Part shown: one piece after another, positions 1 to 59,320 of the stretch | Layout of the letters: every line of letters begins with the position of its first letter | Position numbering within the stretch: the first letter of the stretch is position 1 | Assembly (NCBI GenBank): GCA_030770425.1 | Contig: JASJFT010000022.1 | Location: forward strand, 1-64,000 | Length of the DNA stretch: 64,000 nucleotides | DNA from: Darksidea phi | Lineage: Eukaryota > Ascomycota > Dothideomycetes > Pleosporales > Lentitheciaceae | Direction: 5' to 3' | Notes under the pieces: model-generated | What the model saw: only the letters and a program-made list of their open reading frames with translations | Database searches by the model: none | What the model was told of the DNA's origin: nothing | Made by a program: the position numbers and the translations under genes

Positions 1-1205
1 AGGATATTCTTATAAGAGGAGAGCTCTAGGATTAATATAGTTAGATATAGACGGGCTAGTAGGTAGATAGAAGAAGACTAAAGGAAATATTACTACCTCT
101 ATATCTATATACCTACTTTTAGTATAAATAATACTACTTCCCTAACTTTCTATATCCCCTTTATTATCGGAGAAGTAATAGAAGCTAGCCTAGAGATTCG
201 TAACGTAGCTAAATAGAAGGTTATCCTTAATAAATTCGTCCTTAGAACTTAGTCTCCCGTTCTTCTAAAAGATAGTTATTATTATACCCCTTATTATCGA
301 CGAAGTAGAGGACGGAATATAATTAATTAAAGGGGGGAAAGAAATAAACTTATACTTAAAGGGTTAGCTACCTCCTATAAAAGTAGAGAATATAGGTATA
401 CTTCTACTAGCTTATTTATAGTATTTAATTTATAACGACTTATAACTATAGAGAGTTAAGATATAATATTTAGATTATAGAAGTAAGTTTTTTAGAATTT
501 AATCTACTAGCTCTAGACGCTCGACTTTCTTTTATCTACTTCCCTAATCTATATATAAGGTAGTAACCTATTTCTATTTAGTATTTAGTCGCTATAGTTT
601 TCTTATCCGACTACGTCTAGGGCTTAGCCGTTATAAAATAGATTTATTCTTAACGTTATCTTAAATCCCTAGTAGGCGTAGTATAAGGTAGAGCTTATTA
701 TATATAGTAGATACTATTTATACTTAATAGCTCTATTAGCTACTATAATTTCCTTTAGCTAAAAGTCTTATCTCTAATATAGCTATATTACCCGTATAAG
801 AGTCGTACCCTTATAAGATATATATATATAATACTATAGCCTCTATCGTTCTATACTATACTAGTACTAGCTATACCTTAGCTAGTAAGAGATATACGTA
901 TAGAATTCCTAATTATAAAGTAATAATCTACTACTACTACCGCGAACTTATCTTAGATACTAGACTACGACTAATATAGGCCCCTACTAGCTATATAGAT
1001 ACTTAGAATAGGTACCTCTTTTACTATATATTAATTAGATATATTAGAATCGATACTAATATATCTATATAGCTTAATAAGGATTTATTCTATAGTCTAG
1101 GATTAGGGATACCTCTCCTAGTAGCCGCCGTAGATAGTTACTTTACCTAGTAATTATATAGATTATAGTAACTTTAGTATTATATACTAATACTTAGAAT
1201 AGTAA

Positions 1206-1395
1206 GACGGAGATATTAAACTTTAAGTTAGTAGAGGCGCTATTATTAGTTATCTATTTAGCTATCTATATCTTTACTATACCGGCGATAGTTTTATACC
1301 TTTATAGCTAATCTAGAATAGTCTAAAGGTATAGGAGATACGTATATACGGAAGATATACGATAGAAGTTATATCTATAGTTAAGTATATATATA
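1206..1395 (+). pseudogene. Relict membrane-protein segment, copy A
   Basis: The plus frame reads KLVEALLLVIYLAIYIF followed by a second hydrophobic stretch, then a basic SRIV-RYRRYVYTED tail. It matches copy B at about 4.79-4.97 kb in sequence, frame and order. No family was recognised. Confidence 0.45.
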
Positions 1396-2279
1396 TATCT
1401 TACTCTCTCGACTATAAAGTACTAAAAGAGGGGGATAAAGAGCTTATTACTCTACTTCGTCTACTTCGTCTACTTAATTAACCTATTCTATCTATTTTCT
1501 TACTTCGCTTTATATACCTTATATTCTAAGTATCCGCGAAGTATCTCGATTTATTAGTAACTAAGACTAACCTATCTTTATATAATCTAAAGGATTAGTC
1601 TAGAGTATCTATTCCTTTAAGAGCTTTACCTTTTAAGAGTATCCTATAATTCCTTTCTAATCGTCTATAATAACGTCTTTACTAATTAGTACCCGTTACC
1701 TCTCTATATATAAAGATATAGTATAAGTAACCTTTAGTAACGTCGTATTTATACTCTATAGCTAGGATTCTAGTACTAATCTAGTATACTTATAGTAGCG
1801 ATATATATATTAGTAGTAAATATTATATAATATTATATTATCTAACCCTATCGAAAACTCTATTATTATAGAAGGGGGTAGGTAGTTATAAAGTTAAGTC
1901 TAGGGAAAAGATAAGAGGTTTAAGTCTATCTCGTATAACTAGGACGTAAATAGATAGACTAGCTTTCTATAGAGATAAGAAGAGAGGTATAGCTTTATAA
2001 GCTTAATATATTTAAACTAATACTCTTATCTAAAGAATATCCTATATACTATAGATATCTATATAAGATAAAGTTATTATAAAAAGAGGCTAGCCGCCGA
2101 AGCCGTTCTAGGGAGCGAGATACGGACGTAGATTCCGAATATCTATATAATATAGTATAAAGAGGGGTATCCAAGCGTAGATATAAAGACTAAGTTATTA
2201 GATACTTAGATATAATATTATAGTAGTTAAGGTATATATAAGTCTACTATATATTTAATAAATAGACTACTCTACCTTA

Positions 2280-3250
2280 AAATATACGACGGTACTTCTA
2301 AGATATAGTATAAGATCTATAGAGAAGTTATAGCTAAGAACTAGACTATATATTCTATCTAATAGTTAAGTATAATTATAAAGAATACTTAAGGTATAGC
2401 TTAAGTAGTAGGCTAAAAGACTATTAAGTTAGTATTAAAGGGTAGTATAAAGGAATATATACTAGAGTAAAGACGAATATACCTCTTTCTCTTTTAGGTA
2501 TCTTAGAATTAGATACGGAATTACTCTTATTCCTATTCTATAGTAGGTCGATTTCTATACCGCCTAAGTATCCTATAATATAGGTCTATCTCGCTTAGTA
2601 TTAAAGTAGGTAACGTAATTAATCGATATCGTAACAATACCTAAGCCTTATTAATATCCTAATTATAGTTCTCGATTTATAGTATAATAATAACGAACTA
2701 ATTAAGTAAATCTAATAGAATAGAGAGTACGAGAAATCTTAACTAGTTAGTCTAGCTACCCTCTTAAGGAATTAGGTTTTTACCTATTACTAGTTAATAA
2801 AGATAGATTAAGAAGTATTATCTAGGGTAGTTAAGATAAAGTAAAGTAAAGCTCTATCCGGTACTAAGTCCGAAAGATACTAATATAATATAACGTATAA
2901 TTACTCTATAAGTTAGAATAAATTTAACTTTAAACTATATATATACGAATTAATTAGTATAGTATAGTATATATAAGCTTAAACTAATTATTAAGTACCG
3001 ACTAGAAACCTTATAAGCTACCCTCTAATCTTACTACGTACTAATCTAGTAGGTTTTAGTCCCTTTTTAAGTTAAGGCTTAAACTATAAATAACTTAGAC
3101 TAAAATAAATTCTTACTAATATTAGGTCGTTTTCTCTATCTATAAAATCTATAGTAGCTTATAGACTATTTAGTCGTACTACTTCCTTAAGATTACTATT
3201 TCTTATACGAGCTAAGCGTAAACTATATATCTAAGCTCTAATAGGCTTAA
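2280..3250 (+). other. Unassigned coding fossil
   Basis: Plus-strand frames with mostly Gln/Trp-type stops. They include LRYSLSSRLKDY and TNIPLSLLGILELDTELLL (about 2.40-2.54 kb), and LVSLATLLRN and SKALSGTKSERY (about 2.75-2.88 kb). Hydrophilic and probably once a gene; no family recognised. Confidence 0.3.
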
Positions 3251-3769
3251 AAATTCGGTATTTAATACTAGTAAGGTAAAAAGTAAAAGAATTTAGTAAT
3301 TAAGTAAATATATAGATCTACCTACGTTAGGTTACGTAATCTAAGGAGTTTAAGATATATAAGAAATATACCCTAGTAAAGGTAAGTACTAACTTTTCTA
3401 TTAGTAAGTAATAGACTATAAAGAATAATTACTCTATATATCTAGTATAACGCTATAATTATATTTATAGTAATAAATACTATTAGTAATCGTATATACT
3501 ATAGGTTAATCTACCCTAGTCCTAAGCTCTTATACTTTTCTAGCTACCTACGTAAAAGAGATAAAGAGATAAGTAATACGACTATAATATAAGAAAGTAG
3601 TACGGACTTATAAATAAAGTATATATTCTCGTCTCTAGTTTATATTAGAAAAGTTAAAAGGTTAAGTATAAATATCTCCTACTTTATATAGTAGATAATA
3701 TCTAGTATAGTTAAGATAGTTATAGCGTATACTAGGCCTATAGTCTACCGGAGAAGGATTAAAATATAG

Positions 3770-4200
3770 AGTATCTAGATAAGCTAATCGTATTATTTAT
3801 TAGCGAACTAACTAATATATTAATAATAGTACTTATATTTATACCTATAAGAAGGTAAAGGGTATATAGAATTACTACGTCTAGTTAATAAAGCTTAGTA
3901 TTTATAGTACGTATAATTATAATTATAGTTATACTAGTAATAGATAAGCCTATCTAATATATACTAAAGAGAATACCTAAGATTCTATTCTAGAAGTAGT
4001 TATACTCTAATATCTCGTTCGTTCCATTCGATCTATATAGTATAATATCTTAGTATATAAGTATAATACTTAGTAGAAGTCTATCTAAGAAGTAAAGAAT
4101 AAAGCTAATAAGAAGGATAAGTACTATAACGAAGAGGAGGTAATCTATAGAGTATCCGAATAGGAAGATACCTCCTTATCTATCGAACCCTAGAGACCTA
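3770..4200 (+). pseudogene. Relict coding segment, member of a duplicated family (partner at 29.83-30.25 kb)
   Basis: Shares TATAAGTATAATACTTAG and flanking sequence, including ATCTCGTTCGTTC, with 30,045-30,190 on the same strand. One frame is membrane-like (SFVPFDLYSII, YISIILS-SLSKK) and aligns with ISFVLYSLVSRYISIILR in the partner. Function not recognised. Confidence 0.4.
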
Positions 4201-4789
4201 TTTATCTTAGATATTTAGTAGGTTTATTATAGCTACTTAGTACTTAGTAATATAAAAGCGCTATATTAACGAAGCTCTACTAATATCTTAGCGCTATAAT
4301 TTATAGTAGCCTACTAGTAGCCGTAGATAGTAGTAAAAAGTAATAAAAGAGTAGGTAGTAGTTTACGTTACTATACTAGGGTATTAACTATTACTATATC
4401 TTATCTAATCTTTAGGGGGAGACGGCGTCTCTATATATAGCTATACGTATCTCTACTAAGATAAACCCTTATATAAATAGAATATCTAAGTCTTAATTCT
4501 AATAATACTAAATAGATATATAACTAGAAGAGTATATATCCTAAGTAGCTATACGGCTTATAAAGACCTATATTCGTTATAGTCTAGTATTATAAGTACT
4601 AAGAATAGTCTTTAAGCTATAGATTAATTTAATTATACTCTCTAGCTAGTAAGAGGGGAATTTATACAAAGTTCCTAATAGTAAAGTAGTTATAGTATAG
4701 CTAGTAGCTATACTAATATAGAAGAATAGGGGCGGTATTAGTCCTATATACCTATACCTTATAATACTAGAATTAAGATATTAATATAT

Positions 4790-4970
4790 AAGTTAGTAGA
4801 GGGGGTACTATTAATATTTATTAATCTAACTATCTATAATTTTATCGTACTAGTAATAGTATTATATCTATCTAGTTAGTCTAGGCTTATTAGGAAGATA
4901 TAGGGGGTATATATAAAAGAAAGATATACTATAGAAGCTATATATTATATAATTAAGTATATAAGTATAC
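4790..4970 (+). pseudogene. Relict membrane-protein segment, copy B
   Basis: The plus frame reads KLVEGVLLIFINLTIY, a hydrophobic stretch, then SRLIRKI and VYIKERYTIEA. It aligns with copy A 3.6 kb upstream, so the two mark either a tandem gene duplication or two insertions of one element. Confidence 0.45.
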
Positions 4971-5050
4971 CTTATACTCTCTTATCTATAGAGAGGTAAA
5001 AAGAGAGGTATATAAAGGGTATTATACCTTAAGTAAGCTATTTAATCCTT

Positions 5051-5160
5051 CTTTATCTACTCTCTCTATACTTCGTCTACTTCCTTTATACTTTATCTAC
5101 TCCCTCTATACTTTATCTACTCTCTTTATACTTTATCTACTCCCTCTATACTTCGTCTCC
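5051..5160. repeat. 20-bp tandem repeat, pyrimidine-rich
   Basis: Five and a half copies of CTTTATCTACTCCCTCTATA in exact 20-bp register from 5,051. A shorter related CTACTTCGT repeat occurs near 1,455-1,475. Strong strand bias (C/T on +). Twenty bp is not a multiple of three, so it is unlikely to have been coding. Confidence 0.85.
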
Positions 5161-7330
5161 TTCTACCCCCTTTATAGTCTTAAAGAATAAGCGGCTTATA
5201 GTCTACTATTAAGGACCCTACTTCTCTATCTATAATCGGAATCAACGGCTTAGATAAAGTAGGAGGTATAATAGAATAGGTATAGTATATAAACTACGAT
5301 CTATTTAGTCTAGTAGCTAAAAGATATAAATATCTAGTTAGCGATATATTAATAAAGTTATTTAGGAAGTAGAGATATAGATATAAATAAAAATATTATA
5401 AAAGATCTATTTTAAGAGATAAAGTAGTTATCTCTATATAATTCGTCTAGTAAGTATTCTATAGATACTCTAACTATAGTTAATCCTATTAGAGGAGATA
5501 GAAAGAATATATATCTTAGTTAATAATCTATAACGTAATAACGCCCGTAAGGATACGAGAATTCGTAAACTTAAATAAGAAAAGAGTAATATTAAGTACT
5601 TTCTAGAGGATATAAGTAACTAGCTTAATAACTTAGAAAGTAAATTTATAAATATAGCGAACTATATAAAGAGAAAATATAAGAATTAGAAGAAGGACGA
5701 ATAATAAGTAGTAAAAAAGAGAAAAAGATCCGCTTAAGATAGTAAAGGTAGAACTAGAGAATAGGATACTCTTTTAGAATACCTTTTTTATTATTAGATC
5801 TAATCTTAGTAATAACGTAGTACTATCTTCTAATTACGTATCTAACTTACTTATACTAAGGTCGTACTATATTTAGCTAAACGTTTCTATAAAATTACTT
5901 TATAGAAGGTTATCTTTACTTATCTTTATTAAACTCGATAGTAATAAGCTAGTAACTTTATTACTAGTAGAGGGTATAATTTACCCTTTATAGGAGTTAA
6001 CTCTAGAGTACTATAGAAGAGGAGAAACTTATAAGAGTTTCTTAGTCTAGAGGTAACTAAGACTCGTCTATCTTATCTATTAATACGAATCTATTAAATT
6101 AACCGTTACAATATACTAGGAAATATACATAGATATCGTATTCTTAGTATAGTTTAGCTAATTTATCGTAGAGGGTTTTAGATAGCTTCTAGTAATTATT
6201 ATTTATAGCCCGCCTTATCTTAGAGTATAATAGTATCTACGATTACTATAGAGATACTATAACTATAGGAGTAAAAATTAGAACGGCTAGTCTATATATA
6301 CGTAGACTAATTTATTAAACGACCTATATACTATAACCTACGCGCGAAGTCTAGATTTCGAATTAAGGTACCTATTTTTAGACCCTTAATTACTACTACT
6401 AAGTCTCTAAACCGGCCCCTCTATTTTATAGATATAGTAGTAAGGGAGGCTTATACTTTACTATATATAGAGTATAATATTACTAAATATAGTTAGTTTC
6501 CGGTTTCTATTATAGGGGCCTAGGTATAGTTTTCTATTTTTATTTTAAGTCCCTATTAGTATAAGCTCTTATTACTTAATAAATACTCGGACTACCCGCT
6601 TCTAAGGTTACTAAGCCCTAATTACCCGTCTAATTATAATAGATAGTTATAATCGGAATAGAAAATATAAAGTAAATTCCTATCCTCTATTATTTAGCTT
6701 ATTAGAATATCCTATCTAAAATTATAGACGACTCTTTTTATACTTAGACTTATCTTTCTACTTAATCTATAAATTAGATACTAGGTTAGACTAGCTAGTC
6801 GCTAATATAGCTTATAACTTATTATATATTCTAGAAGTATCTAGAAATTTAATAACGTCTCTTTCTAATTCTAGAATTAAAAGTATAGTATTTATCTTAT
6901 CTTTTATAACGTTCTTAAGATATATATAAGGATTTAGCTTATAGAAGTTTATATTATATATCTATATACTATTATACTTTCTTATATACTTTATTACTCG
7001 TTACTCTATCTTCTTTACTACTAGTAAATTAAAGGGATTAACTTAAAGACTATCTTTAACTCTTTAAATCCCTCTCTTATAGATTATAAAAGTTATAGAG
7101 ACTTTTTAAGTATTTATCTATTAACTAGAATCGGAGGTATCTATTACTAGAGAATTAATATTATTTAGCGAAGTATAAGTTTACTTATCTAATTCTACTT
7201 AGCTCTTTTCTATTTATTCCTAAGTTATAGGTTCTATAACTTCCTCTAAGTTAATCTAGATAATCTATTTACGGTATTTTTCTCTTCGCGTAGTACCTAT
7301 ACCTCTAGGGGGCTTAGGTTTCTTTCTACG
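5160..7330. other. RIPed sequence with no recognisable gene
   Basis: Uniform CpA/TpG-free sequence. Short frame-biased patches (for example RKGKKEE-like basic text near 5.57-5.75 kb, +) but no family was recognised. Confidence 0.3.
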
Positions 7331-10300
7331 TTACTTCTTATATTACTTATACTTCTTCTATATACTAGTAATATATTATACCTTTATAAGATATTTTAGT
7401 CCTTTACTTATATTCGTCTCTTAGATATTATCTATCTTAAATAGCTCTTACTTAGTTTATCTATATCTACCCCCTTTAGCTTACCGTCGGCTTTCTTACT
7501 CTACTAGCCGGGGTCTCTCCTCCTTAGTCTACCCCTCTTTCTTAGCTTATTCCTACCTCTTAGTTTATCCCTACCTCTACTTTTATATATTATCTTCTTC
7601 GAATAGATCTTTCTTAGTATATCTATATTTCTTCTCCTCGGCTTACTACTATCTTTCTTACTCTACTACCTAGTATTTCTTCTCCTCGGCCTCTATCTAC
7701 CTCTCTTCGGCTAACTAAGCTAGCCGAAATAGCTTTACTTCCTCGGCCCGCCTCCGTTCGGCTAGCTAAGCTAGCTATCCTTCCTCGGCCTACCTCTATT
7801 CGGCTAGCTAAGCTAGCTATTCTTCCTTAGCCTACCTCTATTCGGCTAGCTAAGCTAGCTATCCTTCCTCGGTCTACCTCTATTCGGCTAGCTAAGCTAG
7901 CTATCCTTCCTCGGTCTACCTCTATTTAGATAATTAAGTAAATCGTCCTTCCTTAACCTTCCTCTATTCGGCTAGCTAAGCTAGTTATCCTTCCTCGACC
8001 TACCTCTATTCGGATAACTAAGTAAATTATCCTTCCTTAGCCCGCCTCTATTCGGATAGCTAAGCCTAGCTCTATTCGGATAACTAAGTAAGTCGTTCTT
8101 CCTCGGCCTACCTCCGTTTAGATAGCTAAGCCTAGCTCTATTTAGATAACTAAGTAAGTCGTCCTTCCTCGGCCTACCTCTATTCGGCTAGCTAAGCTAG
8201 CTATTCTTCCTCGGCCTACCTCTATTCGGATAACTAAGTAAGTCGTCCTTCCTTAGCCTACCTCTATTTAGCTAGCTAAGCTAGCTATCCTTTCTTAGTC
8301 TACCTCTACTTCTCCCTCTTCTACTCGGCTTATCTCTACTTCTCCCTTCTCTACTCTACTAGCTAAGCGAACTGCTACTACTTAGTAAATCTCTATATTT
8401 CTTCTTTAACTTCTACCTTAAGTATTTCTTACTTAGGGAATCGTATTTATCCGTAAGTTATAATAATATAGGCTAGTTTACCTAAAAAGGTAAAGTATAT
8501 AGATCTATAGATAAAGAAAGATATTATCTTAAAATACTATTACTTATTAGTATCGTATAACTTATCTAAAAATAGTAATAACTTATTCTATTTATAGTTC
8601 TTTAGTTCTAGAATCCCGTATCTTTTAGGTAGCCTATTATTATTATTAACCTCGAATATATTTCTCGTCTCCTCTTCTATTAGTACCTCGACTATAGAAA
8701 AAAATCTAACTATTTACTCTATATAGTTCTTAAAGGTAATAGTATTATATTTAAAGTAGTCTAGTCTCTAAGCCTCTAGTAAAGCTTTATAAGTAATCTA
8801 TCTATTAGTAGATCTTTAAATTAAGTTAAGGATTAGTATAGACTTAAATCCTAATTAATAGATATAAGTAGCGATCTCGTATAAGGTTACCTTACTAGAT
8901 TTCTAATCTAGTTTCGCTTTAGAGTAGCGTATAGTAATAATCTATATCTACTAAAGTATAAAATCTTCTCTATCTAATAGATCCCCTAGTCTAAGTATAA
9001 ATCTAGACTTAGATTCCTAAACTATATATTAGTTAGCTTTCTAATTTCTATCCCTAAATACTCTTAGAAGGGTAGAGAATATAGAATCCCTTAGTAATAA
9101 CTCTATAAGTAATTTTACGTACTTAACGGGGCCTTAGAAATAGTTAATATCCTTAAAGTAGCTATAGAAAGAAGGAATTAAGCGGTCTATAGAGATAGAT
9201 AGTACTTCTACCTATATAGCTTTATACTCTTACTTATTAAAAGTACTAAAAATCTTATTATTACGTAATTAACTATATAAAAGTTCTCTATTAGCTCTAG
9301 ATACGCCTAGAGCGGTAAGCTCTAAGGCTTTTATATTAGTTCTACTTAGCTTCTACCTCGCTTATATATTAGAGAGAATCTTAGTTTAAACTTCCTTAAT
9401 ATATCTAAGATAATAGAGGTTTTCCTATTTATATAATTAGTAATTAGAAGTATCTCTATTTAGGACTAGGGCGGTTTCTATAAAATAGAAAGGTATTAAA
9501 AAAGCTAACTAACTTTTCTATTATTAGGAATACTACCCTAGTTAGAATACTTATCTTATAGTATTTTATAGCGAAAATTTTATATAACGTACTTAACTAT
9601 ATACCCTATTTTAATACTAGAATATCTAACTAAAGATTAAATATATATATATAATCTCTATAATAGAGAATCTACTTTAGGTTTCTCGTTTTATATTTAG
9701 ATATCGCGTATAAACGAGCCTACTACCGGTTCTTAAAGTATAGATTTCTAGATATTTAGTATTCTTAGATTTTATAGTATATCTCGCTATTATCCGGTTA
9801 TTTTTTAAAGGAGTACTCTTTGATAAGTATAGTCTTTAGATCGTCGTTAAGATCTAGCTAAAAGTATAAGAATCTATTTCTATATAGGGAAGAGTCTTTA
9901 CCTATAAGATATAGATCTATAATCTAGCGGCTACCTAGATAGATATTTATAGCTACTTTAATTCGGTATTATCTATAGAGATATTTTAATTAGAAGCCGG
10001 CCGGAAAATCTAGCTCCGGATAATTACGTAGATCTAATAATTACTTAGTAGAAATTTCTAAAGTAGTAATAATATCCTCGAGCTAATACTAATTAATAAT
10101 AGTAGGAATACGACTTCGAAATTATAAAATATATTACTTATTCCTAGTCTTTAATAATATTATAAGTTTCTCGGCGTACTTATTATCTATCTCCCTAGAT
10201 TTCTTAGGGTTATATAGAAAATATAATACCTTAATCTTTACTTAAGTAGTATCTTTATACTTTAAGAACCTCTCTACTATAATTTTCTATTCTTGTTTAA

Positions 10301-10520
10301 TAAATCGTACCCGACGTATATTAAGGTAACTACTAGGAATATATAATACTAGTAGAAGAGTAGATATCTTTATCTATTCTCCCGTAGTTTATTATACTAA
10401 ATCTATTACTATAGTTACGTACTTAATATATTTTAAGGAATAATTATAGCCCTAGCTATATATATAGCTTCCTCTTAGAAAAATTATAAAAGTAGGTATT
10501 TATCTATATATATCTTCTAA
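7330..10520 (-). pseudogene. DUF3723-family protein with C-terminal AT-hook-like repeats, RIP-inactivated
   Basis: Reading leftward with TAA/TAG as Gln/Trp gives a long consistent fossil. Landmarks: NKYAEKLIILLKTR (about 10.17 kb), FPAGFxLKYLYRxYRIKVA (about 9.98 kb), DLKTILIKEYSFKK (about 9.83 kb), YKIxEYxI, ARLYAISKYKTRNLK (about 9.69 kb) and IPSFYSYFKDINYF (about 9.17 kb). This is the order of DUF3723 proteins (query-to-RHR core, KEYS and PSF segments). It ends in a very basic tail containing about 13 tandem RGRPRK-like units. DUF3723 has no assigned biochemical role but recurs inside Starship elements, often with the captain, and here lies on the captain's strand. It diverges from the kinase-like fossil about 0.2 kb away. 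Precise ends are uncertain because no ATG survives. Confidence 0.78.
7739..8310 (-). repeat. 42-bp tandem repeat encoding AT-hook-like units
   Basis: About 13 copies of a 42-bp unit (two copies expanded to about 66 bp) containing GGCTAGCTAAGCTAG and CCTCGG. On the minus strand, in the DUF3723 frame, each unit reads DSxLSxPNRGRPRK, a 14-residue repeat whose RGRPRK core matches the AT-hook minor-groove-binding motif. Flanking sequence keeps similar RGR/RPRRR basic patches. Confidence 0.85.
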
Positions 10521-10689
10521 CTAAGAATAACTACGAACCTCGCCCTTCGTTATATATACGCTTAAAATAACTATAAGAAATAAATATTATACCTAAATTA
10601 ATTTTAATATACTTAGTAGGCTTAAGTATTAAGCCGTAGATATAAATAATATTAATAGTAAAAATATAGTCCCTAAGCGTAATAGAATA

Positions 10690-14780: not shown

Positions 14781-14789
14781 AAGGTCTTT

Positions 14790-18800: not shown

Positions 18801-18819
18801 GTAACGGAAAGATTTATAT

Positions 18820-25490: not shown

Positions 25491-28150
25491 GAAAATAAAT
25501 TTTTAGTAATATTATAGATATCTAACTATATAGTATTATAAATAAGTATTAAGCTTAGTACTTAAATTATAAAAGAATAGGAACTAATTTATAAAGAATT
25601 AATAAGTTAATAATTAATAACTATTATCCCGATAATCCCTATATAATAGTAGTACTAAAAGGAAAAGTTAGGTCTATTAGTAAGAGCTAGTAGAGTAATT
25701 TAAGATAAGTAGTATAGCTATAGTACTATAGTTATAAATAACCTAATTCTATTATATATATAGTAAGGACGACTATATATATCCCTATATTAATAGATTC
25801 CTTCTCTTTATAATCTCCTCGAGCTTTATAATTACTATTTAAACGAATTTGTTAAAATCTTCTAGGAATAGAATATTATCTTTCTTATAAATATACTAGA
25901 CGTTTCTATACCTATAATACCCTTCTAGGTAGTAGATAATAAGTTTTCTAGATTAGGAATAGCGGCCTAGCTCTATTAGTAAAACGGGGCTAATAGTATT
26001 AGGATAAAGGTAGAGGATAATAAGATTAATCTTATCGAGATTCGTTATTTTCTAATTTATTTAATAATAGAGGTTCTTGTCCTTAATATCTTACTTCTAG
26101 TTAGGGTTCTAATAAATACGGCGAGGGTTAAATATAGTAATAGGAAATAAGGCGATTTTAGTTATAAAGACGACTTACTAGTCGGAAGCTTTATCTATCT
26201 CGATACTACCTCTAAGGAAGATTCGTATACAATTATTAACGTCTATATTTTCTAGGAGGTCGTAGTATCTAAATATAGGATTTTATTCCGGCTTTTCCGT
26301 TATATATAGAGATAGGGGCTCCCCTTAATTAGTTTCTAGGAACTTTATAGTTAAAAATAATAGCCGAACTAAGTAATAATATACTTATTTTAAGGGAATT
26401 AAGATAATAGAGAAAGAATTATCTTAGTTTATAGATATAAGTTAGTATAAGTACTTTACTAACTATACCTCTTAGACTAATTAGTATAGTATAGTACTAA
26501 CTTATACTATTCCTATATAAGCTTACTAGAGTATTATTAACTTTAATTAGTTATAGACTAAATTAAAGCTTATTATATACTATAAGGTATAGTAATAGTC
26601 TTAGTTTATACTTATTCTATTACGTTAATATATTAAGACTTAGCTAACTAAGGCCCGTTTAGGACTCTAGTTAGATAGGGCCCGTTTAAGCTGTAGAAGG
26701 TAGTAGATAATAGTAGAAGAAGATAAGTAAGGCTTATTAGATAACCTTATTTATACGAACGCTAGTATAGCTAGCTTTAAAAAAGTTCTAACTACTTTAG
26801 GGCCTAGCTAGTAAGAAACGACTAAAGAGCTAATTAGAAATTAGACCTTCTACCTAGCTTCGTACCGAAGGAATATATCGCTACTATAGCTTATATTATA
26901 GGGATTTATATAGTTAGTACCGCGTTATTTATAGATTAGTACGTCTCTAACTCTTAGATAGGATCTCTAGTATAATACTACTCTACCTATAAATTAAAAG
27001 AATACTATAGGATTTATTATCTATTCGGCCGGTAAGTTTAGTAATATACGAGCTTATTCTATAATACTATCTTACTACCTAAGGAAACTAGTATAGTATC
27101 TTAAAAATAGATCCTCTAGAAAGGTATATAGTTCTCTTATACTAGGTCCTAATTAGGCCCCTTTAGATTTTAGTTCCTAGATCTTTAAGATTTCTAGTCC
27201 CTTTCTTAGAATACCTTACTATCTAATACTTATAAGAGTTAATCTAAACCGATACTATAAGGTATAAAGAAGTAGAAGAATAGCTAAACTAGTCTTACCT
27301 AATATATAATAAGGTAATAATACTAGTAGTAGGTAGCGATTTTATACCCTACCGTATTATATAGCTCCGATTTACTCCTAAAAATCTTTATCTATAGCGA
27401 AGCTAATAGGCTATAAAAGGTAACCTACTTTATTTAGATTTTATACTAGACTATATACCTGTAAGATAAGATAGAATAGCTTATCTTCTTAAAGTAAAGA
27501 AACTAAGTATGTATAAACTATACCTTACTTTTAAAATATTAGCTACTAGCTATCTCTCTATTCGTATAGAGTACGTATATATAGATTAGAGAGTAATATA
27601 GTTCTAAATAAGTAATACGACTCGAAACTAAGTAAGCCTAGACGGGTATAGTATAGACGAGACGATTTACTCTCTACTAATAGTAGCTATTTAATAATAC
27701 TAGCTAATAGATATTCTAATACGTAGTCTAGTTCTATATAACTATATAACTTAACTCTATAAATAACGATCTTCCCCTCGTATATAGTCGTCTATTTCCT
27801 CTATTATAGTACTTTAAAATATATTAATAACTCTATTATTATCTTATTTTAATAATATATATTCTACTTATCTTTAGGAAAACTATAACTATTATAAGTA
27901 TACTCTCTATATAAACTCTAGTACTCTAGATAGTAATAATTTTAAATTTATAAAGATATTTAGAATTAGCTATAGTAGATTATTTTTATTAAATTATAGT
28001 AATATTCGTTATATATATAAATTTTCTAGTTATTAAAAGTTAAAGTATCTCTTATTTATCTCGTTATATATTATCTCGCTATATAGTAAGGGATATTAAT
28101 AACTATAGAGAAATATAAAAGAATTTAATACCCGAACTAAAACTAGTACG
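25490..28150. other. RIPed sequence with unassigned coding fossil
   Basis: A plus-strand fossil at about 26.65-27.25 kb has mostly Gln/Trp-type stops (ARLGL-LDRARLSCRR, NASIASFKKVLTTLGPS, GFIIYSAGKFSNIRAYSII, SRKVYSSLILGPN). A HeLo-like domain was considered but is not supported well enough to call. Confidence 0.3.
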
Positions 28151-39840: not shown

Positions 39841-41000
39841 TATTTATTATCCTTTACTACCCTCTTTATTAGGGTTGTATATACCTATTTATTAACTCTC
39901 TTAATAGTCTATTAAGGATTACCCTTAACCCTAATAAGAAAGTACTAGATCTCTACTACTAAAAACGTATTCTCTAGAATCTTAGAAACGAAATCGTCTA
40001 ATAACTATTTAATATCTTCCCGATACTTATATAATTAAATAAATATCTCCTATATATAATCCTTCTTCGTAAGAGTAAACTTAATATCCTCGTTAATTCT
40101 CTTAGGGTAGATAAGTATATCGTCTAATTTACCTTTAAAATTTATTATTAATATAAGAACGCGACCCTCTAAGCTAGTAATACTATTAATAATATTAAGG
40201 AGATCTAAAAGTATAATATCTACCTTTTTATTTAATAATTTCTTTAACTCTTTAACTACTTAATCTATACTATATACTTAATCTATACTACGTACCTTAA
40301 TTAAAGTATCCCGAGGTCTTCTAATACCCGTAGTATTAATATCCTCGAGTAAGATAAGGGATAGTTTACGTAAAGATATAAATAATTAAATAAGGCCGTA
40401 ATCTAAGAGATTATAATTACTTAGTACGAGTATATAGATATTAAGACTAAACTCGACTATAAATACTTTAGCTAAGCTCGTTTTCCCTATTCCTAGTAGT
40501 CTATAGAAGAGATATCCCTAATACTAAAATATACCTCGTTTAGTATACTATAAACGGTTACTTAAATACTTATTTATATTATTAAGTACTCTTTTCTTTA
40601 TAATTTCGTCTATAAAAATACTCTTTAATAGCCGAAGAGTTCTTCTCTAAACCTCTTTCTATAGTAGCGCGAATCTATAGGCCTTAGATATTAGTAGCTA
40701 TATAGAGGACTATCTTCGGCGTTCTATAGTTATCTCGTTAAGAAAGTTCTTAATAGACCGAGTATTATAGCCTAATATCCTTAGAATAATTTACTTCTCG
40801 TTCCCTCGGCTATATAGGCTTATACTACTTAGTCTTAGTATCCGTTAAAATAAGAACGGGCGGTAGTTATATATAAAGAAGTAGGATCTATAATTAAATT
40901 CGAATTAAGCGAGTATTTTACCTAGTCTTATATAGAAGAGTTTCCCGATAGTCTCTTTATCTATTTCTAGTTTATTCTAATTATCTAGTCTAGCTTATAC
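39840..41000 (-). pseudogene. BCS1-like AAA ATPase, RIP-inactivated
   Basis: A single frame carries BCS1_N-like sequence (FNYRSYFF, NYRPFLF, ILRILGYNTRSIKNFL, about 40.7-40.9 kb), FIDEIIKKRVLNNINKYL (about 40.6 kb), then RGIF-x-Y-x-GYLFYR, Walker A LGIGKTSLAKV (about 40.48 kb), LNIYILVLSN, the Walker B segment LILLEDINTTGI (about 40.34 kb), LEGRVLILI, LDDILIYPKRI (about 40.12 kb) and the C-terminal KFTLTKKDYI / FLIRVKGNP region. BCS1 in mitochondria translocates folded Rieske protein; filamentous fungi also have many BCS1-like paralogues of unknown role. Stops are all Gln/Trp-type. The catalytic motifs survive better than expected because they lack CA/TG-containing codons. Likely cargo. Confidence 0.83.
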
Positions 41001-41199
41001 TACTCTTAGCTTAGTTAAATATATAAACCGTTATACTATCTAGTTTAGGATTATTATATATAAGATATAAGAATAGTCTAGATATATTAAGGTAATAAGA
41101 TTATTATACCCTTAACTTAGTAAAGACTAGGGGAGATAAAGGGCTATAGATATAGTAGCCTAAAGGATAATAATAAATAGAATAATAAGGTTAATAAAG

Positions 41200-44100: not shown

Positions 44101-46400
44101 TAAAGCTACTTATATTAGAACTATATTATTAAAGTAGTTCGTAGTTAAACCGATATTAAATCCTTTGGATACTAACTACTATTCTCTTCCGTAGTAGTCT
44201 AAGTATAAATCTTTAAAGGTACTAATTAACACCTATATTTTCCTAGTATTAATTATAGTATCCTTTATCTAGTACTCTAAGAGGAGATTTCGGACTAGCC
44301 GCTTCGGTATCCCTTTAATAAGGTTAGTATAGGGAGAAAATACTAGTAAGTATATTCCTAATATAGGTATAGTAATCGAATTTAACCGGAAGATAGTAGA
44401 AGATCTACGGATAGCTAGTATAGAGTAGAAGGCTATATTCTAGAGTATCTAAGTATAGTTACCCCGGTATATCGTTATTATTAAGAGCGAGTAGTAAGAG
44501 GCTAGGTTAGACTTAAAGTTAACCCTCTAGAAGTTATTACCGTCCTTACTACTATTCTTATTACCGTTCTTACTACTATCCTCGCTACTATTATTCTTAC
44601 TACTATCCTCGCTATTCGTCTATTTACTAGTATCCTCTTCTAAACTATATTTACTCTTACCCTTAATAGCTTCTCTACTCCTCTTAATATTCTAGATAAT
44701 AAGACTAGATAGCGATACGACTCTTAAAGTCGACGACTTAGTAATAGACCTAGTAAGAATAGAAGTACTAGACTAATATACTAGTTACGGGTTCGAGATA
44801 GTTATTATAATACTTATTTTACTTCTATCTAGATAGTAAGTAGAAATTAGAGATAGTAATTAGAAGTAGAGTATAAGCTAATACGTAAGAATATACTATA
44901 ATATACTCTATAGCTTATTATCGATAATAAGACGGTCTAAGTAAGTACCGCGTATATATTATATATAGTAAAAGATACCTATAGCTATTTTATTACTCGG
45001 CTTCGATTACTAGTACTAAGTCTATATCTATTACTAATACCTAGAGTATATAATAAAAAGTTTAAAAAGGTATAATCTAGAGAGAGAAGATAGTCTCTAC
45101 TATCTTTCTTAGCGAGATAGTATTTATAATTAACTCTATCCCTCTTTTAACTAATTAAGAAACTAAGTAGTAAGTATAGCTATTATCTCCGGTCTATTAG
45201 ATTTCTACTTAAAGGGTAGAGATAGAAGAATTCAACGGATCTAGGATTATAGAATCCTATTCTTTACGGCCGTCGAGCTAATACGTAAAGAAGAAGGGGA
45301 AGAAAGGCTTAAGAATAGTAATAACTACTATACTAAGGATAAGATAGAGTAAATTAAGACTTCTATATATATAACGTAATAAAAGGAATATAAAATAAGA
45401 GGCGTATTTCTAATATATAGAAAGCTAGATATAATATAACCGGTAGCCGGAGCCGTAGATAAAGGAAATATTAGAAATAGAGATAACTAAAGTATCTAAA
45501 AATCTAGGGAAACTATATACTTTTTTTCTAATACTCTATAAATATATACTTATTCCTCCGAGATTTTTCTATTATACGTATAGCTTTTTAAACCTCTATA
45601 CGATATATCTTTATATTTTTAAATAATATAGTTATAAAGTCTTCTAAGATATACGACTCTATTCTATTCTATACTAGATAACCCTCTTAATTAGGAAATT
45701 TAGTTATATACGTATAAATAAGGGTTAAATACTCTAAAGTCTTAACGTCTAGAACTTTATTAAGTATAGTTAGATAAGTTAATTTAAATTACTTAGACTT
45801 AGTTAGACGTAATTCCTAATAGTAAAATAATTAGACTTTAAAAGCCTATAAATAAGGATATATACTAAGGTAGAGGTAATAGATATAGTTCCTTATATAT
45901 AAGACCGTAGAAGTATAATTAAGAAAAGAAATAAGGCGAGAGTAGGTAAGAGAAATAAGATTAGAATATTAATAACGTATAACTACCTATAGTAAGGTAG
46001 TAGACGAATACTAAATAAGGACGTAGGTAAAGAACGTATAGAAAGATAATTAGTTAAGGATAAAAGATAGGGGCGAACCTAGGGCGTAGAATATAGGGTA
46101 ACTAGTAAAGAACTAAAAGGTAATAGACTAAAGGATATCCTAGTCTTATTAGGAGAGTATATATATATATTATAGAATTAGCCCTCTCTATACTTTTAAT
46201 ACCTTCCTTCTATCGCTTATATCTAAGTAATAATTAAACTACGATAGTCGTTCCTATAGACGACTTTCTAAAAGAATAGTATTTAGATATTCGGCTAGAT
46301 TTATATAGCTTTAGTAAAGAGATACCTCTATATAGAGATTTATACCTACTTAGAAGAGTATCGATAACTTAAGGAGTAATTAGTAATAGTAGTAAGAAGT
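41200..46400. other. RIPed sequence with unassigned coding fossils
   Basis: A plus-strand fossil lies at about 43.4-44.06 kb, rich in Gln-type stops (VLEYLDRTSTLYINYKTS, FIKPIVLNLY, DELLIYGYKIYIIILDRL, ATRLVYNRQVENLRKLN), and a Leu/Thr triplet repeat (TTACTACTATCCTCGCTA type) at about 44.53-44.62 kb. No family recognised. Confidence 0.3.
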
Positions 46401-46420
46401 ACTTCTAGTATATAAGAATA

Positions 46421-46482
46421 AGGACTAATAATACGTCCGATTACTAGCTATATAGCTAGTAATCGGATATATTATTAGTCCT
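46421..46482. repeat. 62-bp near-perfect palindrome
   Basis: The arms 46,421-46,451 and 46,452-46,482 are reverse complements over 31 bp with two adjacent mismatches (CG in the left arm, TA in the right). The centre is AGCTATATAGCT with no spacer. The arms begin and end AGGACTAATA/TATTAGTCCT. It could extrude a cruciform or be a collapsed pair of element termini. Confidence 0.9.
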
Positions 46483-46689
46483 AGTTATATATAAAGTTTT
46501 ATAGTACTTTATCCTAGTCTACGACTAATAATTAATCCCTTTACTAGTTATCTAATTAGTAGTAACTATATATAACCTATATTCGGCTATAAGTATATAT
46601 AGACCTATAAGAGATCTTTATTATAGGGAAGATAGAATATCCGATACTAGTACCCTAATTATAGGCTATAGGACGAGAGCTCTTAGTAG

Positions 46690-52950: not shown

Positions 52951-53420
52951 TTTAGTTCTAATCTAACTTAACTTCTACGAATATATAAAGTAGTAAAAAG
53001 AAACTATTAGACCTTAGCTTTATACCTAGTATAATTATATACTATAGATTTCTAATTCTAAGCTAAGTCTCTATAAAGAGCCCCTCTTATAGTACTTATA
53101 GCTCTTATACCGTAGATTTTAATCCTTAAGATTAAGTATTAAAGACTCCTTTTAAATATATAGTAACTAATAGATTAGTCTTAGATTTCTCTTATAGTCT
53201 CTAGTTTACTTCTTTTAGATACTTTAGTTTACTTTCTACGTACTATCGGCGTTTTAGTTTAACTAATATCTATATTCTCATTTCCTCTATTATATAACTT
53301 AATAGGGCGTTCTCTTCTTAAAGTCGATCGATTAGAGTACTAAAACTAACGTCTATTTTATTAATAGTCGACGTTACGGCGCCGTCTAATATACCTAAAG
53401 AGTTAGTAGAGTTTTTTTAT
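52950..53420 (-). pseudogene. Relict coiled-coil-like protein segment
   Basis: The minus frame reads LGILDGAVTSTINKIDVSF, STLIDRL-EENALLSYIIEE, VESKLKYLKEVN and EKSKTNLLVTIYLKGVF, with heptad-like hydrophobic spacing. Stops are Gln/Trp-type. Family not recognised. Confidence 0.4.
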
Positions 53421-55780
53421 TTTACTAGAATAGTCTTAAAAGTCTTTCTAATACTATTATATAGCTCCTTATATACGTTAATAGAATAATCGCTTATATT
53501 TTTTAAGAATAAGTATTTTTTCTTAGGAAGAAATCTCTAAGTATATAGATTATCTAGGCTTAAAAGAAGATAAATCTAAGCTAGCTCTATAACGATACTA
53601 AGTCTACTTTCTAGAACTTATTAGCTTTCCTAAATATAGGAGCTAGTATATATTATATATATATATTAATAGTTTCTTATAGTACTTTATTCTCTACTCT
53701 CGTCGTTCTAGATTACTTACGCGTATTAGAGCTATAGATTAATAGGAAATAAGAATTCCTATAGAGACGATTTTACGATTTCCTTCTTAAAATCCGCGTA
53801 GTCTCCCTATAGTTACTTATAGTACCGAAATAGCCTCTTACTATTATTAGGAATATTTTAAGTACTCGGCTATAACTAGCTATAAGATATCTATATATAG
53901 AATAGAACTAGTTTTAGTTACTACCTCTAAGCTAGAAAATAGAGGCTTCTATTACGCTAGGAGATTAACTTAGATATAAATTTATAATATTATTAAAGAT
54001 ATTAACGTTACTTTATTTAGTATCTATTAGTATTACTAGTAGTAGTCTCTTTAATAGCGAGGTAGAAAATTAGCTAGATAAAGTAGCTCCGGGCCGTTAC
54101 TATATACGCTATACTAGCTTATCTAAGTAACTATTAGTATCTTTAATTAGGCGCTGGTATAATCTCCTAAATAACGAATAATCGTTTTCTTTATATACCT
54201 AGTACCTTATCTAGCTACGATTCTAGAAGTATCCGGTACTTACGTACTCCCTTAACGTTTAGTTCTACTATTATTTATAAATAGCTCGCCGACCCGTTTA
54301 TCTCGTTCTATTAGTTCTAAAAATATAGTCTCTATCTTTATAATAAGTACTATAATCTAAGTAATATTAACCGCCCTAGTCTACGAATATAAACCGTCGC
54401 TTACTATAATAAAAGGTTAATATAGGTAATAGGCCCCGAACTAGTAAGCTTAGTATAGTAAAATAATATATATTAGATAAGAGCGATATAAAGAAGAATA
54501 CTATCTTAGTAGATATATTATTACCCCGTTCTCTATTTATCTAATATCGACCTAAGTACCTCTATATAATCTAGGAAGTCTAAATTAAAGCTAATAATAA
54601 GTTCGGCTAAGATCTTATAGGTCGAACTAGTATTCGTATATTAACTAGTAGTAATATTAAGGCTCTAACGTAATTTCTATACTTTCTATACGTAATATTA
54701 ACTATATACTAAAATAATTCGAATTTATAAAAGTTTTCTATTTAAGTCTTATTATTACGATCTAAGTAAAATATTCTACTAATACTTAACTTCTAATTCT
54801 TCTTCCTAGCGGGGTTTTCTATATAGTCTAAATAATCTATTTATCGGCTTATTATTATCTAGATAGTCGTTAGCGTTCCTACCTTCCTTCTAGTATTATA
54901 TCTAGTAATCTAGCCTTTATAGAGGTTTAGGTTAGGTTAGATAGACTCTATAGAAGTTATAGAGCTTATATAGACTATTCTTAAAGTTTACTACGTTATA
55001 CTACTTTAAATCGTCGTCGTAGCTAAGCTATTTTACGTAATATTTAAGCTTTCTTCTAAATATACGGGTCTTTAAAACTTACTTAATCTTATATTTATCT
55101 TCTTCGTCCTCTTAGATAGAATAAGCTAGGTCGAACTTAGAGTATACCGCTAAAGCGTACTTAAGCTAAAGCCTAGATAACGACTCCTTATAAAAGCTTA
55201 TACTCCGGAAACTATTATTCTACTTATTTATCTTAGCTTCTTTAGTATCTAGAATTATAATATTATCTATTAATCTATTAGAGTTTATAGGTAATTACTC
55301 TCTAAATAGTTAATCTTACTAATATACTTATAATCCCTATTATCGGCTCTATTATTAAGAGTATCTTTACTATCGAGACTATTATTCGATTTACTATACT
55401 ACGAGGATAGTAGTATATTATCTTCGCTTTTATTTTAATCTAATATAATTTTCGATATTAGCGGGGAGCCTAAATTAGTAAAAGATAGGACTTTAAGTAG
55501 AGTAGTACGGGACGTTAATATTTCCCTTTAGTTCTAAAACGTATTACTTTTATCGATAAATTTATATTTTAGATCTTTCTTCTTCTACTCTAATAGCCTC
55601 CTCCTAACGTATATCCGCTTAGTTGGTTTAGTTTTCCCTTTAGTCGCTAGCCTAGATCTTTTAAGAGTACTCCTAAAATTAATATAATATATATCTTTAA
55701 GATAAAACTAGAGTTTCTATAATAACGTAAATAACTCTCTATAATAGAGCTTACTTAGAGGGTATATTAGTAACTTAGAA
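53420..55780. other. RIPed sequence downstream of the recombinase fossil
   Basis: May contain the C-terminal tail of the DUF3435 protein (acidic patch EEDEEDKYKIK-like near 55.08-55.13 kb, minus). Otherwise nothing assignable was seen. Confidence 0.3.
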
Positions 55781-58179
55781 TCTTTAGAGTACTAATTATA
55801 GATATAATCTTTCTATTTAGTTATCTTAGGGAACTACTATATTTATATATTAGGGGGTAGGAACTTATTACCTAAATAGTCGGGATAGAATTCCGAATTA
55901 GTAAGTATTTCTCCGTAGATTAGTAGATTATACTATATAGGGATCGTTTCGGACTTATCTAAATAGGCTTAGTAATAATCTTTCTATTCCTTCTAATTAA
56001 CGAACTATCTACTATAGAGGAAGTAAAATTCTACGAATTCGTAACTATTCTTAAGCTATTTCTAATAGTAACTAAGTATATATTTCTACTATATAGTAGC
56101 TAGTTAATTATTACTCTAATTAGATACTATATTATAACGATAGATAGGGTTACGTACCTATAAATCTTTCGCGTAAGATCTATTTTTAGATAGTAGTATT
56201 TATCTAGCTTAAGACCTAGTTAGAATACTACTTCCTCTTCTTATAAATAAAGCTTAACTAGATCTTAGAGGATAGCCTTACCTATATTACTACGTATAGT
56301 AGCCTTAATAAATATACTAGATATTAAGTAGTCGCGTACCGGTATAAGCTTATATACTCGCTAGAATATAGTTCTATAATAGCCGGTATATTCTTTTCTA
56401 TAGGTATTAACTTTACCTACTAGTTAAGTAGACTATTCTTTCTAATACTTACGGAATACTTCCGAAATTAACTTCTATTTCTAGACTTATAACTCCTTAT
56501 ATTTATTCTTTAATAGTATATCGTCTAAAGAAAGGCCCTTAAGTTTTACTTTAATATTATTAAAGTCGGCGCTCTACTTAAGCTCGTACCGCTTTTCTAC
56601 TAGTAGCGACTACTATAGCTCTAGATTCTAAGTAATACTTAGAAAATAAAAAAGGTCCGTAATATCCGTACGATAGTCTTTATCGTAGAAGAAGATAGTC
56701 TAACTATCTACTCTAGTATTATTAGCTATATAATAATTACGATATACTACTAGGTTATACTATCTATTCTATTTTATTCTTATATTCTATAAATAGTTTC
56801 TATCTATATATAATATAAGTTAGATATATAGAGTACTATAGAATAGTATACGTACCGATAAGAATTAGACCCTCTACTCTAAAATTATATACTATTAGAG
56901 GTTTATTATAGCCGGTATAAAAGCCCTATTCTCGAAGATATCGGCTAAATATACTTATAGTCTCTATCTTTCTATTACTTCTCTAAAAGAATAGTAGGTC
57001 TAGGATACTTAGATTCTAGTAGAGTTAAATTATTTACTCGTCTTATAGAGGTTCTAGTACTAGAACCTCGTCTAATAACTTATAATCTCTAAATATATTT
57101 CTTACTATATATATAGTAATAATTATAAGTATTAGATTATAAAATAGTAGATAAGTCTTAATACCTTTATATAACGCGTACTCTAGTCTATTCTATAATT
57201 AGTATTAGGTACGTACGTAATAAGGATTAATTTTACCTCTTATCTAAAGTAAACGTTATACTCTTAGTATCTTACTAGAGTTATACGGTAAATTCTATAT
57301 TACTATACTTATTACGAAATATAGTAAATATTATTTTCTAACCTATTACTATTAGTTTATATAGACTACGGTAAGATAGACTTACCCGAAAACGTAAGCC
57401 TCTATTAGATCTAAGACGATATATAGATTCTATATATTCGCTAATTCTTATAGTACTAAAAATAATAGCCGAAAAAAGAGCCTAAATATCGTATCTACGC
57501 CGCGGCTTTAGAAGTACGAATTAATTAGTCTTCTACTACTATATTTCTAGGTAAAGAAAATATATTTATAAGCCGTATCGCCGTAGTCTCTTTTAAAAAG
57601 GAAGTTTAAGAATATTATATAGCTTATACTTAATAAACTATCTTATATAATTAGTACTAACGCTATAAAACGGTAGGCTAGCCGTAGTAAACTTACGTTT
57701 AAGGTAGATAGCGTTACGTTTAGACTTATTACCTTTACTAGCTCCTTCTTCTCTCCCTCTCTATCCTTCTCCTCGTTATCTTATTCTTCTTCTATCCTAG
57801 CTCGCCTCTAGGTACTGGTAAAGTCTTTATAATACTAAACTACGGTCTATAGACCTACCTTTTTATTACCGTACCTACCGCTAATTCTAAGTATAATATT
57901 ATATATATAGTTCTTAGAATCCTTAATATTATTTAGGTATACTCCGGGATACTTCTCCTTATAGCTAGTATTAAAAATTTAGCGAGGTATACTAGGCTTA
58001 GAGATATTATCGTAGACTTACTAACTCTATAGCTCTAATATACGCTTATAGTTTTTTATTATACTTAGCTAAAGTTCCTTTAGAACTTATTTTCTATTAA
58101 TAACGGCTCCCTTCTTCTCTATAGCTACGTTATTACTAGTACGCTTAAAAAAGGCTTCTAGCGAAATCTTCCGCGGCAT
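55780..58179 (-). pseudogene. DUF3435 tyrosine recombinase (Starship captain-like), RIP-inactivated
   Basis: The start is the ATG at 58,179, read as MPRKISLEAFFKR, and it lies exactly at the edge of RIP. Codons then run in one frame for more than 250 residues, interrupted only by TAA/TAG expected from Gln/Trp. DUF3435 landmarks: TVVxYYKDFTSTxRR (about 57.8 kb), RISEYIESxYRLxSNRGL (about 57.43 kb) and IFRNKYSNIEF. After a frame change near 56.8 kb come DLFYFLSIxxNLELxxSL (about 56.65 kb), HYRTIF/KLxPxRDYL-like text (about 56.35 kb), and a C-terminal EFVEFYFLY segment that was a C2H2-like finger before Cys-to-Tyr changes (about 56.0 kb), then GNKFLPPNI (about 55.85 kb). The family is about 800-950 residues long, so the fossil is nearly full length. 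It faces into the RIPed block, as a captain should. The catalytic R-H-R-Y residues could not be placed, and the gene cannot be functional. Confidence 0.8.
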
Positions 58180-58727
58180 CCTAACAGTACGAGAAGCTAA
58201 GATAATGAAAATAGAATAAATAAGAGCCCAAAGTTTAAAAACTACTATTACTACTACTAACCAAATGAAAATATAGTAGTAATGGCTAAAGTAGTTAGGT
58301 AGTTAGGTAGTCTTGACCCAGCGGCGCAATTATACCTTTATAGAAAAAAAGCGTAGCATAAGCTACGTTACTAATAGAAGACGGCACTGAAATTTTAGGA
58401 CAATAGGAGAGCGAGGGGGCATAAAGGGGGGCCTATTTTGTCCCCAATCCTTGAGGGACAATTTTGTAACCCACCATCCAAAACACGCCCCATCGCCCAA
58501 ACCCACGTCTAAGCCTCCTTCTCGTCTAGACTTGACCAAAGTATGAGGGCACAGTTAAGTTAAAATGAGTACGATTGGCTGCCGTGGAGCGCAGGCCAAC
58601 GTGACTGAGCAGTGGGTGAGCAGCCTGAGGAGCGGGTGAACCGAGGGTGATAAGGACCTGAGCAAAGCAGCGCTGCTTACTAGCCACGGCAGGAAAGAGA
58701 GTGCTGGAGAAATTTGACTGACTACCT
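58177..58727. promoter_or_regulatory. Non-RIPed island upstream of the recombinase start; probable 5' terminal region of the element
   Basis: CA and TG reappear at normal frequency between the recombinase ATG and the truncated Fot1 element, with no long open frame. It contains several small inverted repeats: TTGTCCC/GGGACAA (58,438-58,444 and 58,455-58,461), CGTAGC/GCTACG (58,352-58,357 and 58,362-58,367) and CTGCCGTGG/CCACGGCAG (58,579-58,587 and 58,684-58,692). There is also a short tandem GTTAGGTA repeat near 58,293-58,310. By position it should hold the recombinase promoter and, if the Starship model is right, the element's 5' terminus. No terminus or target-site repeat can be proven from one end alone. 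Confidence 0.45.
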
Positions 58728-59320
58728 AGCTAGATAGCTTTAGTCTACCTACGTCTCTCTAAGCTAGTAATAACTAGTTACGACGTTATCTTATCTATTA
58801 GAAAGCTAGCTTCGTCGAAGTTATAGATATCCTAATTAGTAATACCCTAGGTAGCTTTAGTATACGCTACTCGGTTAAACTAGAATCGAATAATATTAGG
58901 ATCCTCGTAGAGAGCTTACTATTAATTATAGGGTCGATTAAATCGTATTTTAATACTATTAGTTCGCTAGACGAAGTTCCTAGGCTATAGCTTACCTATC
59001 TACTTAGCGCCGTACGTAGTAAGTAGTCTATTCGCTATATCTCGTATAGTATCTAGAGTAGGGGTAAATCCTCGTAAATCTAGGTCGAGTATATAGCTAA
59101 TAATTACCTCCTCCTCTAGCTTAGAAAGCTTCTTTAATTTAGGCTAGTAATCGCGTCGCGCAGCGATTCCAGCGCGTCGGCGACGAACTGTTGTGTTGGG
59201 GACGTTAAACGTGGCTGCAGCGCGACTAATACTCTAGATCTGATTCTGATTGATAGCTGAGATGGCTAGGGAGATATCTGCTTCGTTGCAGGGCAATCGA
59301 ATAGTAGTTGGTTGAGCCAT
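58728..59320 (-). pseudogene. Fot1/pogo-type (Tc1-mariner, DDE_1) transposase, 5' fragment, RIPed and truncated
   Basis: Reads from the ATG at 59,320 leftward: MAQPTTIRL, then a psq-type helix-turn-helix (SISRAAATFNVPNTTVRR), a CENP-B-like HTH segment (KLSKLEEEVIISYILDLD, RGFTPTL), then FNRPYN, ALYEDP and NFDEASFLID, the last containing the first Asp of the DDE catalytic domain. In-frame TAG/TAA occur where the family has Gln or Trp. Homology stops around 58,728 soon after LVITSLERR, so the second and third catalytic acidic residues and the whole 3' half are missing. Base use changes inside the gene: 59,160-59,320 keeps CA/TG, while 58,728-59,160 has none. The fragment ends against the un-RIPed island next to the DUF3435 gene, as though another element had inserted into it or a deletion had removed the rest. 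Confidence 0.88.

What the first reader, a model, noticed from the sequence alone, without database searches (positions are those of the whole stretch)
1..58730. RIP-destroyed Starship giant transposon with decodable cargo
A DUF3435 tyrosine recombinase fossil sits at the right edge of a 58-kb RIPed block and points into it, and a DUF3723 fossil lies inside. That is the Starship layout (captain first, inward-facing; DUF3723 accessory). Other fossils (sirtuin, J-protein, BCS1-like ATPase, kinase-like protein) look like cargo. A Starship inactivated this completely would be hidden from gene-prediction-based surveys because no open frame remains.
Basis: partly seen in the sequence, partly recalled or inferred. 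Interest (0 to 1): 0.9.

Follow-up and report, generated by a model that had tools for sequence, protein, structure and literature searches.

The report
RIP-destroyed two-copy Starship transposon
This block is part of a giant fungal transposon, most likely a Starship, that exists in two copies, both mutated beyond recognition by the fungus's own defence against repeats; such wrecks are known, but this one can be delimited unusually well.

Summary
Window 1-58732 is saturated with RIP and aligns end to end with C57:57744-116477 of the same genome: 58,730 aligned sites, 4,759 differences, 4,758 of them transitions. So two practically identical copies were RIPed independently. Homology stops at 58732, inside a repeat with 68 matching sites; 7 empty copies were read. 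Of 62 exact matches to the left half of that site, one alone lacks the continuation; it lies on C457, the contig already found to match the left part. The element is then about 124 kb; its left junction was located, not read. DUF3723 is certain. Pfam does not see the right-edge captain, but a RIP-aware DUF3435 core profile ranks that gene first in both copies; two of four core definitions did not, so the captain is probable, not proven. Of the proposed cargo, a weak BCS1 match survives; sirtuin, J-protein and kinase were not found; Nuc_deoxyri_tr2 and DUF3295 fossils are new. Direct repeats could not be read. RIPed Starships are in print, so this is a new member of a known kind.

The parts
1..58732 (.). 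Right part of the RIPed element (captain side); continues left beyond the contig end
   Evidence: End-to-end alignment with C57:57744-116477, 91.9%, 4,758 of 4,759 differences transitions
56743..57162 (-). DUF3435 tyrosine recombinase core of the probable captain fossil
   Evidence: First of 780 window chunks for core columns 272-427 (14.5, next 5.2) and the same gene first of 780 chunks of the C57 copy (8.9); z 9.5 and 7.5 against 40 shuffles each; not found by Pfam
56623..58179 (-). Frame of the probable captain fossil, facing inward from the border; its downstream end is not established
   Evidence: Low-stop stretch 57451-58302 in this frame; N-terminal relative on C421, 46% over 100 residues, E 2.9e-17
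58200..58732 (.). Terminal stretch, nearly un-RIPed here and RIPed in the C57 copy
   Evidence: 28 CpA + 27 TpG against 0 + 1 in the C57 copy
58723..58732 (+). Ten bases at the border shared with the empty target repeat and, with RIP changes, with the C57 copy
   Evidence: Alignment of 7 empty copies; junction of both copies
8480..10115 (-). DUF3723 fossil in two pieces (8480-9424, 9561-10115)
   Evidence: PF12520 E 2.8e-36 and 3.0e-17; same pair in C57:66223-67858
25917..26225 (-). Nucleoside 2-deoxyribosyltransferase-like fossil
   Evidence: PF15891 E 9.0e-8; C57 copy E 3.2e-10
44395..44676 (-). DUF3295 fossil
   Evidence: PF11702 E 5.6e-6; C57 copy E 7.3e-7
40683..40892 (-). Weak BCS1_N-like fossil
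   Evidence: PF08740 E 0.0026, below Pfam's cut-off
58733..59100 (.). Host repeat into which this copy is inserted (right half; outside the element)
   Evidence: 68 sites in the genome match left half plus core; alignment with 7 copies

Best explanation
The block is the captain-side part of a Starship-type giant transposon of about 124 kb. SHOWN: the same sequence lies at two loci with a common right border and different right flanks; here it interrupts a high-copy repeat; the copies differ by 4,758 transitions, one transversion and a few gap columns; CpA and TpG are nearly gone from both; DUF3723 is inside. SUPPORTED, NOT PROVEN: the gene next to the right border, facing inward, is a DUF3435 tyrosine recombinase (captain); contigs C457, C392 and C135 hold one copy whose left junction is at about C457:141,551. 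Neither copy can be active now.
For: Second copy; border and empty sites; left junction on the expected contig and strand, the one of 62 exact left-half matches that lacks the core; RIP; DUF3723; RIP-aware captain profile.
Against: Pfam DUF3435 silent at the right edge although it finds RIPed DUF3435 on C59 and C107; two of four core definitions did not rank the gene first and whole-profile tests were weak; protein searches found no relative; AlphaFold failed; the left junction and direct repeats were not read; order of contigs inferred from C57.
Confidence: 0.85

Rival explanations
1. A large segmental duplication of chromosomal DNA, RIPed because it was a duplicate, with no movement by its own recombinase.
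For: RIP acts on any duplicate; two copies only were found; the captain is not proven.
Against: The copy here interrupts a dispersed repeat at a core also present at the end of the C57 copy, and the other half of that repeat turns up on the predicted contig; DUF3723 inside.
Confidence: 0.07
2. A giant mobile element of another kind that merely carries a DUF3435-like relic.
For: Captain support is statistical; several DUF3435 relics occur in the genome without a shown element.
Against: The best DUF3435-like gene is next to the border and faces inward; DUF3723 is a reported Starship accessory family (PMC12506042, passage).
Confidence: 0.05
3. An ordinary AT-rich block (centromere or pile of small transposons) without element borders, or a short Crypton.
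For: Composition alone would fit; short repeats and an internal 860-base duplication occur inside.
Against: 58.7 kb copied colinearly, almost gap-free, with a sharp border; the 4.8-kb right piece has one full second copy and otherwise partial hits (40 of 83 candidates scored).
Confidence: 0.03

Closest known systems
Derelict RIPed Starships Pi-rho in Paecilomyces variotii IMV00236 and Spiromastigoides sp. (PMC11623301, passages)
   Same: Starships heavily affected by RIP and considered immobile; RIP explained there by a second copy in the genome
   Different: There the cargo cluster is un-RIPed and genes are readable; here both copies are RIPed through nearly all that was read
Gene-poor Starships of Gaeumannomyces tritici type A (PMC11905480, passages)
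   Same: Element-wide RIP
   Different: Average composite RIP index 0.2-0.3 there, 1.55-1.83 here; found there with gene-based tools
Limos in Verticillium and Fusarium (PMC12257634, passages)
   Same: Transition-dominated divergence from RIP (813 transitions, 26 transversions reported); its direct repeat ATTAC resembles the ATTACC in the empty site here
   Different: Compared between species; here within one genome with 4,758 transitions to 1 transversion; direct repeat here not read
Horizon and Sanctuary (PMC9594970, PMC12506042, passages)
   Same: 143 kb and 170-196 kb elements with DUF3435 recombinase, accessory genes and empty sites
   Different: Described with annotated genes; empty sites there in other isolates, here in other copies of the target repeat of the same genome

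Membership tests
Starship | DUF3435 tyrosine recombinase (captain) | tested here: inconclusive
   RIP-aware core profile ranks it first in both copies, z 9.5 and 7.5; Pfam negative; two of four cores not first
Starship | Captain is the first gene at one end and faces inward | tested here: met
   Minus-strand frame from 58179, border at 58732; on condition that the gene is the captain
Starship | Large unit inserted at different sites, with empty sites | tested here: met
   Two copies with different right flanks; 7 empty copies of the target repeat
Starship | Short direct repeats at both ends | not testable with these tools
   Letters of the left junction not obtainable; left junction only located by pattern
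Starship | Accessory families such as DUF3723, ferric reductase, patatin-like, NLR | tested here: met
   DUF3723 only; no other accessory family
RIP target | C-to-T changes on both strands, CpA preferred, in duplicated DNA | tested here: met
Crypton | Short element of a few kb with a tyrosine recombinase | tested here: not met
   Homology over 58,732 bases in the window

The most novel reading that the evidence does not exclude
The AT-rich compartment of this genome conceals a fleet of dead Starships that gene-based surveys cannot count. The one here used a short core inside a 68-site repeat as landing pad, was duplicated once, and was erased with almost no other mutation between duplication and RIP, so the pair is a clean record of RIP over some 120 kb; C162/C184 and C107 would be further members.
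Probability: 0.4. Interest if true: 0.65.

Novelty: new member of a known kind. Interest (0 to 1): 0.52.

Why it matters
A giant transposon can be made invisible to the standard DUF3435 model and still be delimited from two copies in one genome and from empty copies of its target repeat. That offers a way to count hidden Starships in RIP-active fungi.

Tried and rejected
Pfam on the right edge: no DUF3435; the C57 row was given at a wrong offset (L033:5060-8057) and tests nothing. Protein search with the captain frame, X at stops: none. Search with the C421 N-terminus: 2 candidates, none scored. PDB sequence search: one match, E 0.97, taken as chance. Plain and RIP-simulated HMMs from 19 of the 52 DUF3435 proteins (those of 430 residues or more): C113 and C107 ring with both, C59 weakly with the plain one only, the window with neither. 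Whole-profile RIP-aware test: P0001 25.5, above the reversed controls (max 23.9) but below other window frames (up to 32.5); 23.6, z 2.5 against shuffles. Core profile: four definitions; first among window chunks in two, rank 13 and 30 of 1,698 in the others. I chose the core after seeing the translation, so only the ranking over all chunks is independent. AlphaFold: mean pLDDT 36.6, discarded, no fold search. Scripts that failed: option; time limit. First left border (C57:41332) proved to be an assembly gap; a second estimate (C57:10-15 kb) was undone. HTH_psq E 0.0021 could not be placed in 52001-55302. PsbQ, PH_RBD and VATC are taken as chance.

Full report
What the window is. It is bases 1-64000 of contig C135 (353,036 bases) of a 51.35-Mb assembly in 477 contigs; base 1 is a contig end. 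Named relatives of one of its genes are ascomycetes, the closest Lindgomyces.

RIP. In 1-58200 there are 29 CpA, 42 TpG and 12,280 TpA; the composite RIP index is 1.55-1.83 in each of the 29 2-kb windows up to 58,000. From 59,500 on the flank is normal: 314 CpA and 311 TpG in 4.5 kb. 58200-58732 is nearly un-RIPed here but RIPed in the other copy (28+27 against 0+1 CpA+TpG).

A second copy. A search with 54000-58800 found C57:111745-116477. Window 1-58732 aligns without a break with C57:57744-116477. Of 58,730 aligned sites 4,759 differ: 4,758 transitions and one transversion (window 32198); six gap columns form one 2-base gap and two pairs of one-base gaps four bases apart. Transitions go both ways (window to C57: A>G 1275, T>C 1250, C>T 1159, G>A 1074), so each copy was mutated on its own. 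Inference: the copies were practically identical when RIP struck. In the further pieces compared, C457 against C57 (5,409 sites) differs by 362 transitions only; C392 against C57 (850 sites) by 64 transitions and 6 A/T differences, next to a poly-T tract and assembly gap.

Right border. Homology stops at 58732. From about 58721 the window matches a dispersed RIPed repeat (35 of the 41 rows, where 40 of 83 candidates were scored). In 7 copies aligned, the repeat runs through ..TAGTAAYCTACTYRYRATTACCTAGCTAGATAGC.. (one reads TTATC) without interruption. In the window, what precedes TACCTAGCTA is the element. The same ten bases, with RIP changes, end the C57 copy, whose outer flank differs. One base before them the window has C where the empty copies have T, so the exact duplicated bases are open.

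Left border. C57:41332-53908 matches C392 in reverse, and C57:35001-40409 the end of C457 without gaps. Sixty-base probes matched C457 in 60 of 60 purine/pyrimidine positions at C57:15001, 20001 and 28001, but only 38 and 41 of 60 at 5001 and 10001. explains this: C457:159129 matches C57:2116, so C57 has about 7.9 kb more in between. C457:154129 matches C462:3017-3106 in reverse at 86%, so the C57 copy may continue on C462. If the C135 copy sits in the host repeat, the left half of the repeat must lie somewhere cut at the core. Left half plus core has 68 places (up to 2 mismatches); the left half alone has 88 (up to 3), 62 of them exact (backward control 2). Comparing the lists by eye, 61 of the 62 recur; the exception is C457:141524-141551, on the expected contig and strand. 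Of the 26 inexact matches, 2 with one mismatch (C90, C93), 2 with two and all 15 with three also lack the core; they were not followed. On this basis the copy runs from about C457:141,552 to 189,557, through C392, to C135:58732: about 124 kb, counting gaps of about 0.9 and 3.8 kb as in C57. The junction letters could not be fetched.

Captain. Two low-stop stretches lie near the border on the minus strand, in different frames: 57451-58302 and 55305-56423. Pfam finds no DUF3435 there, though it finds RIPed DUF3435 on C59 and C107. From the 52 DUF3435 proteins I took the 19 of 430 residues or more, passed their profile through a simulated RIP channel, and aligned core columns 272-427 to six-frame chunks. 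In the frame of 58302, 57162-56743 is the best of 780 window chunks (14.5; next 5.2), and the same gene is the best of 780 chunks of the C57 copy (8.9). 300 chunks of C57:35001-57744 reach at most -7.1, 180 of a RIPed flank at most -9.4, 1,260 reversed chunks at most -0.1. Against 40 shuffles z is 9.5 and 7.5. Against this: two of four core definitions did not put it first, and whole-profile tests were weak. MAFFT, without RIP correction, sets the same segment against the family core, but AlphaFold was uninformative. I take the captain as probable, not proven. A relative of the N-terminus and upstream region, not RIPed by dinucleotides but with stops, lies at C421:5987-6627.

Cargo. DUF3723 at 8480-10115 minus is certain. 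Nuc_deoxyri_tr2 (25917-26225 minus) and DUF3295 (44395-44676 minus) occur in both copies and have stop-free homologues on other contigs. BCS1_N is weak. Sirtuin, J-protein and kinase were not found. C57:35001-57802, without 40001-41296, gave no family.

Related wrecks. Of 9 DUF3723 matches, others lie on C162, C184, C107, C462 and C124. C162 and C184 match C57:41.5-47.3 kb at 66-71% and agree with each other in order and strand relative to DUF3723; in C57 the DUF3723 is on the other strand. C107 has a DUF3435 fossil and matches parts of window 3134-6300 at 71-78%. They may be further RIPed elements; not followed.

What is known. RIPed, immobile Starships are in print: PMC11623301 (also mentions an experiment in which a duplicated Starship was RIPed), PMC11905480, PMC12134995, PMC12257634. 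For these, PMC12506042, PMC9594970 and PMC12289983 I saw only the passages returned by term searches. I make no claim that this element is absent from print.

Verdict. A Starship RIPed in two copies, probability 0.85; a new member of a known kind, of interest for how fully it is hidden and how well it can still be delimited.

Noticed in passing
window 58200-58732: The terminal 530 bases escaped RIP in this copy but not in the C57 copy (28 CpA + 27 TpG against 0 + 1).
   Followed up: partly
window 53070-53926 and C57:52226-53083: An 860-base stretch occurs twice within the element at 76% identity, perhaps a small transposon inside.
   Followed up: no
window 59643-63998: Right flank, un-RIPed: a major facilitator transporter (59643-61721 minus, E 1.9e-25) and a cytochrome P450 (62818-63998 plus, E 7.5e-23).
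   Followed up: no
L035 (C421:1-10000) 5987-6627: Relative of the probable captain's N-terminus and upstream region, 67% DNA identity, beside a stretch reading N.
   Followed up: partly
L037 (C59) 3683-3963: The last 300 bases of the element have a 73% match beside a RIPed stretch with a DUF3435 fossil.
   Followed up: no
C90:124908 and C93:33609: Left halves of the target repeat (one mismatch) without the core: possible further filled sites.
   Followed up: no
C57:2116-15001: About 7.9 kb more in the C57 copy than in C457, probably a later insertion or deletion.
   Followed up: no
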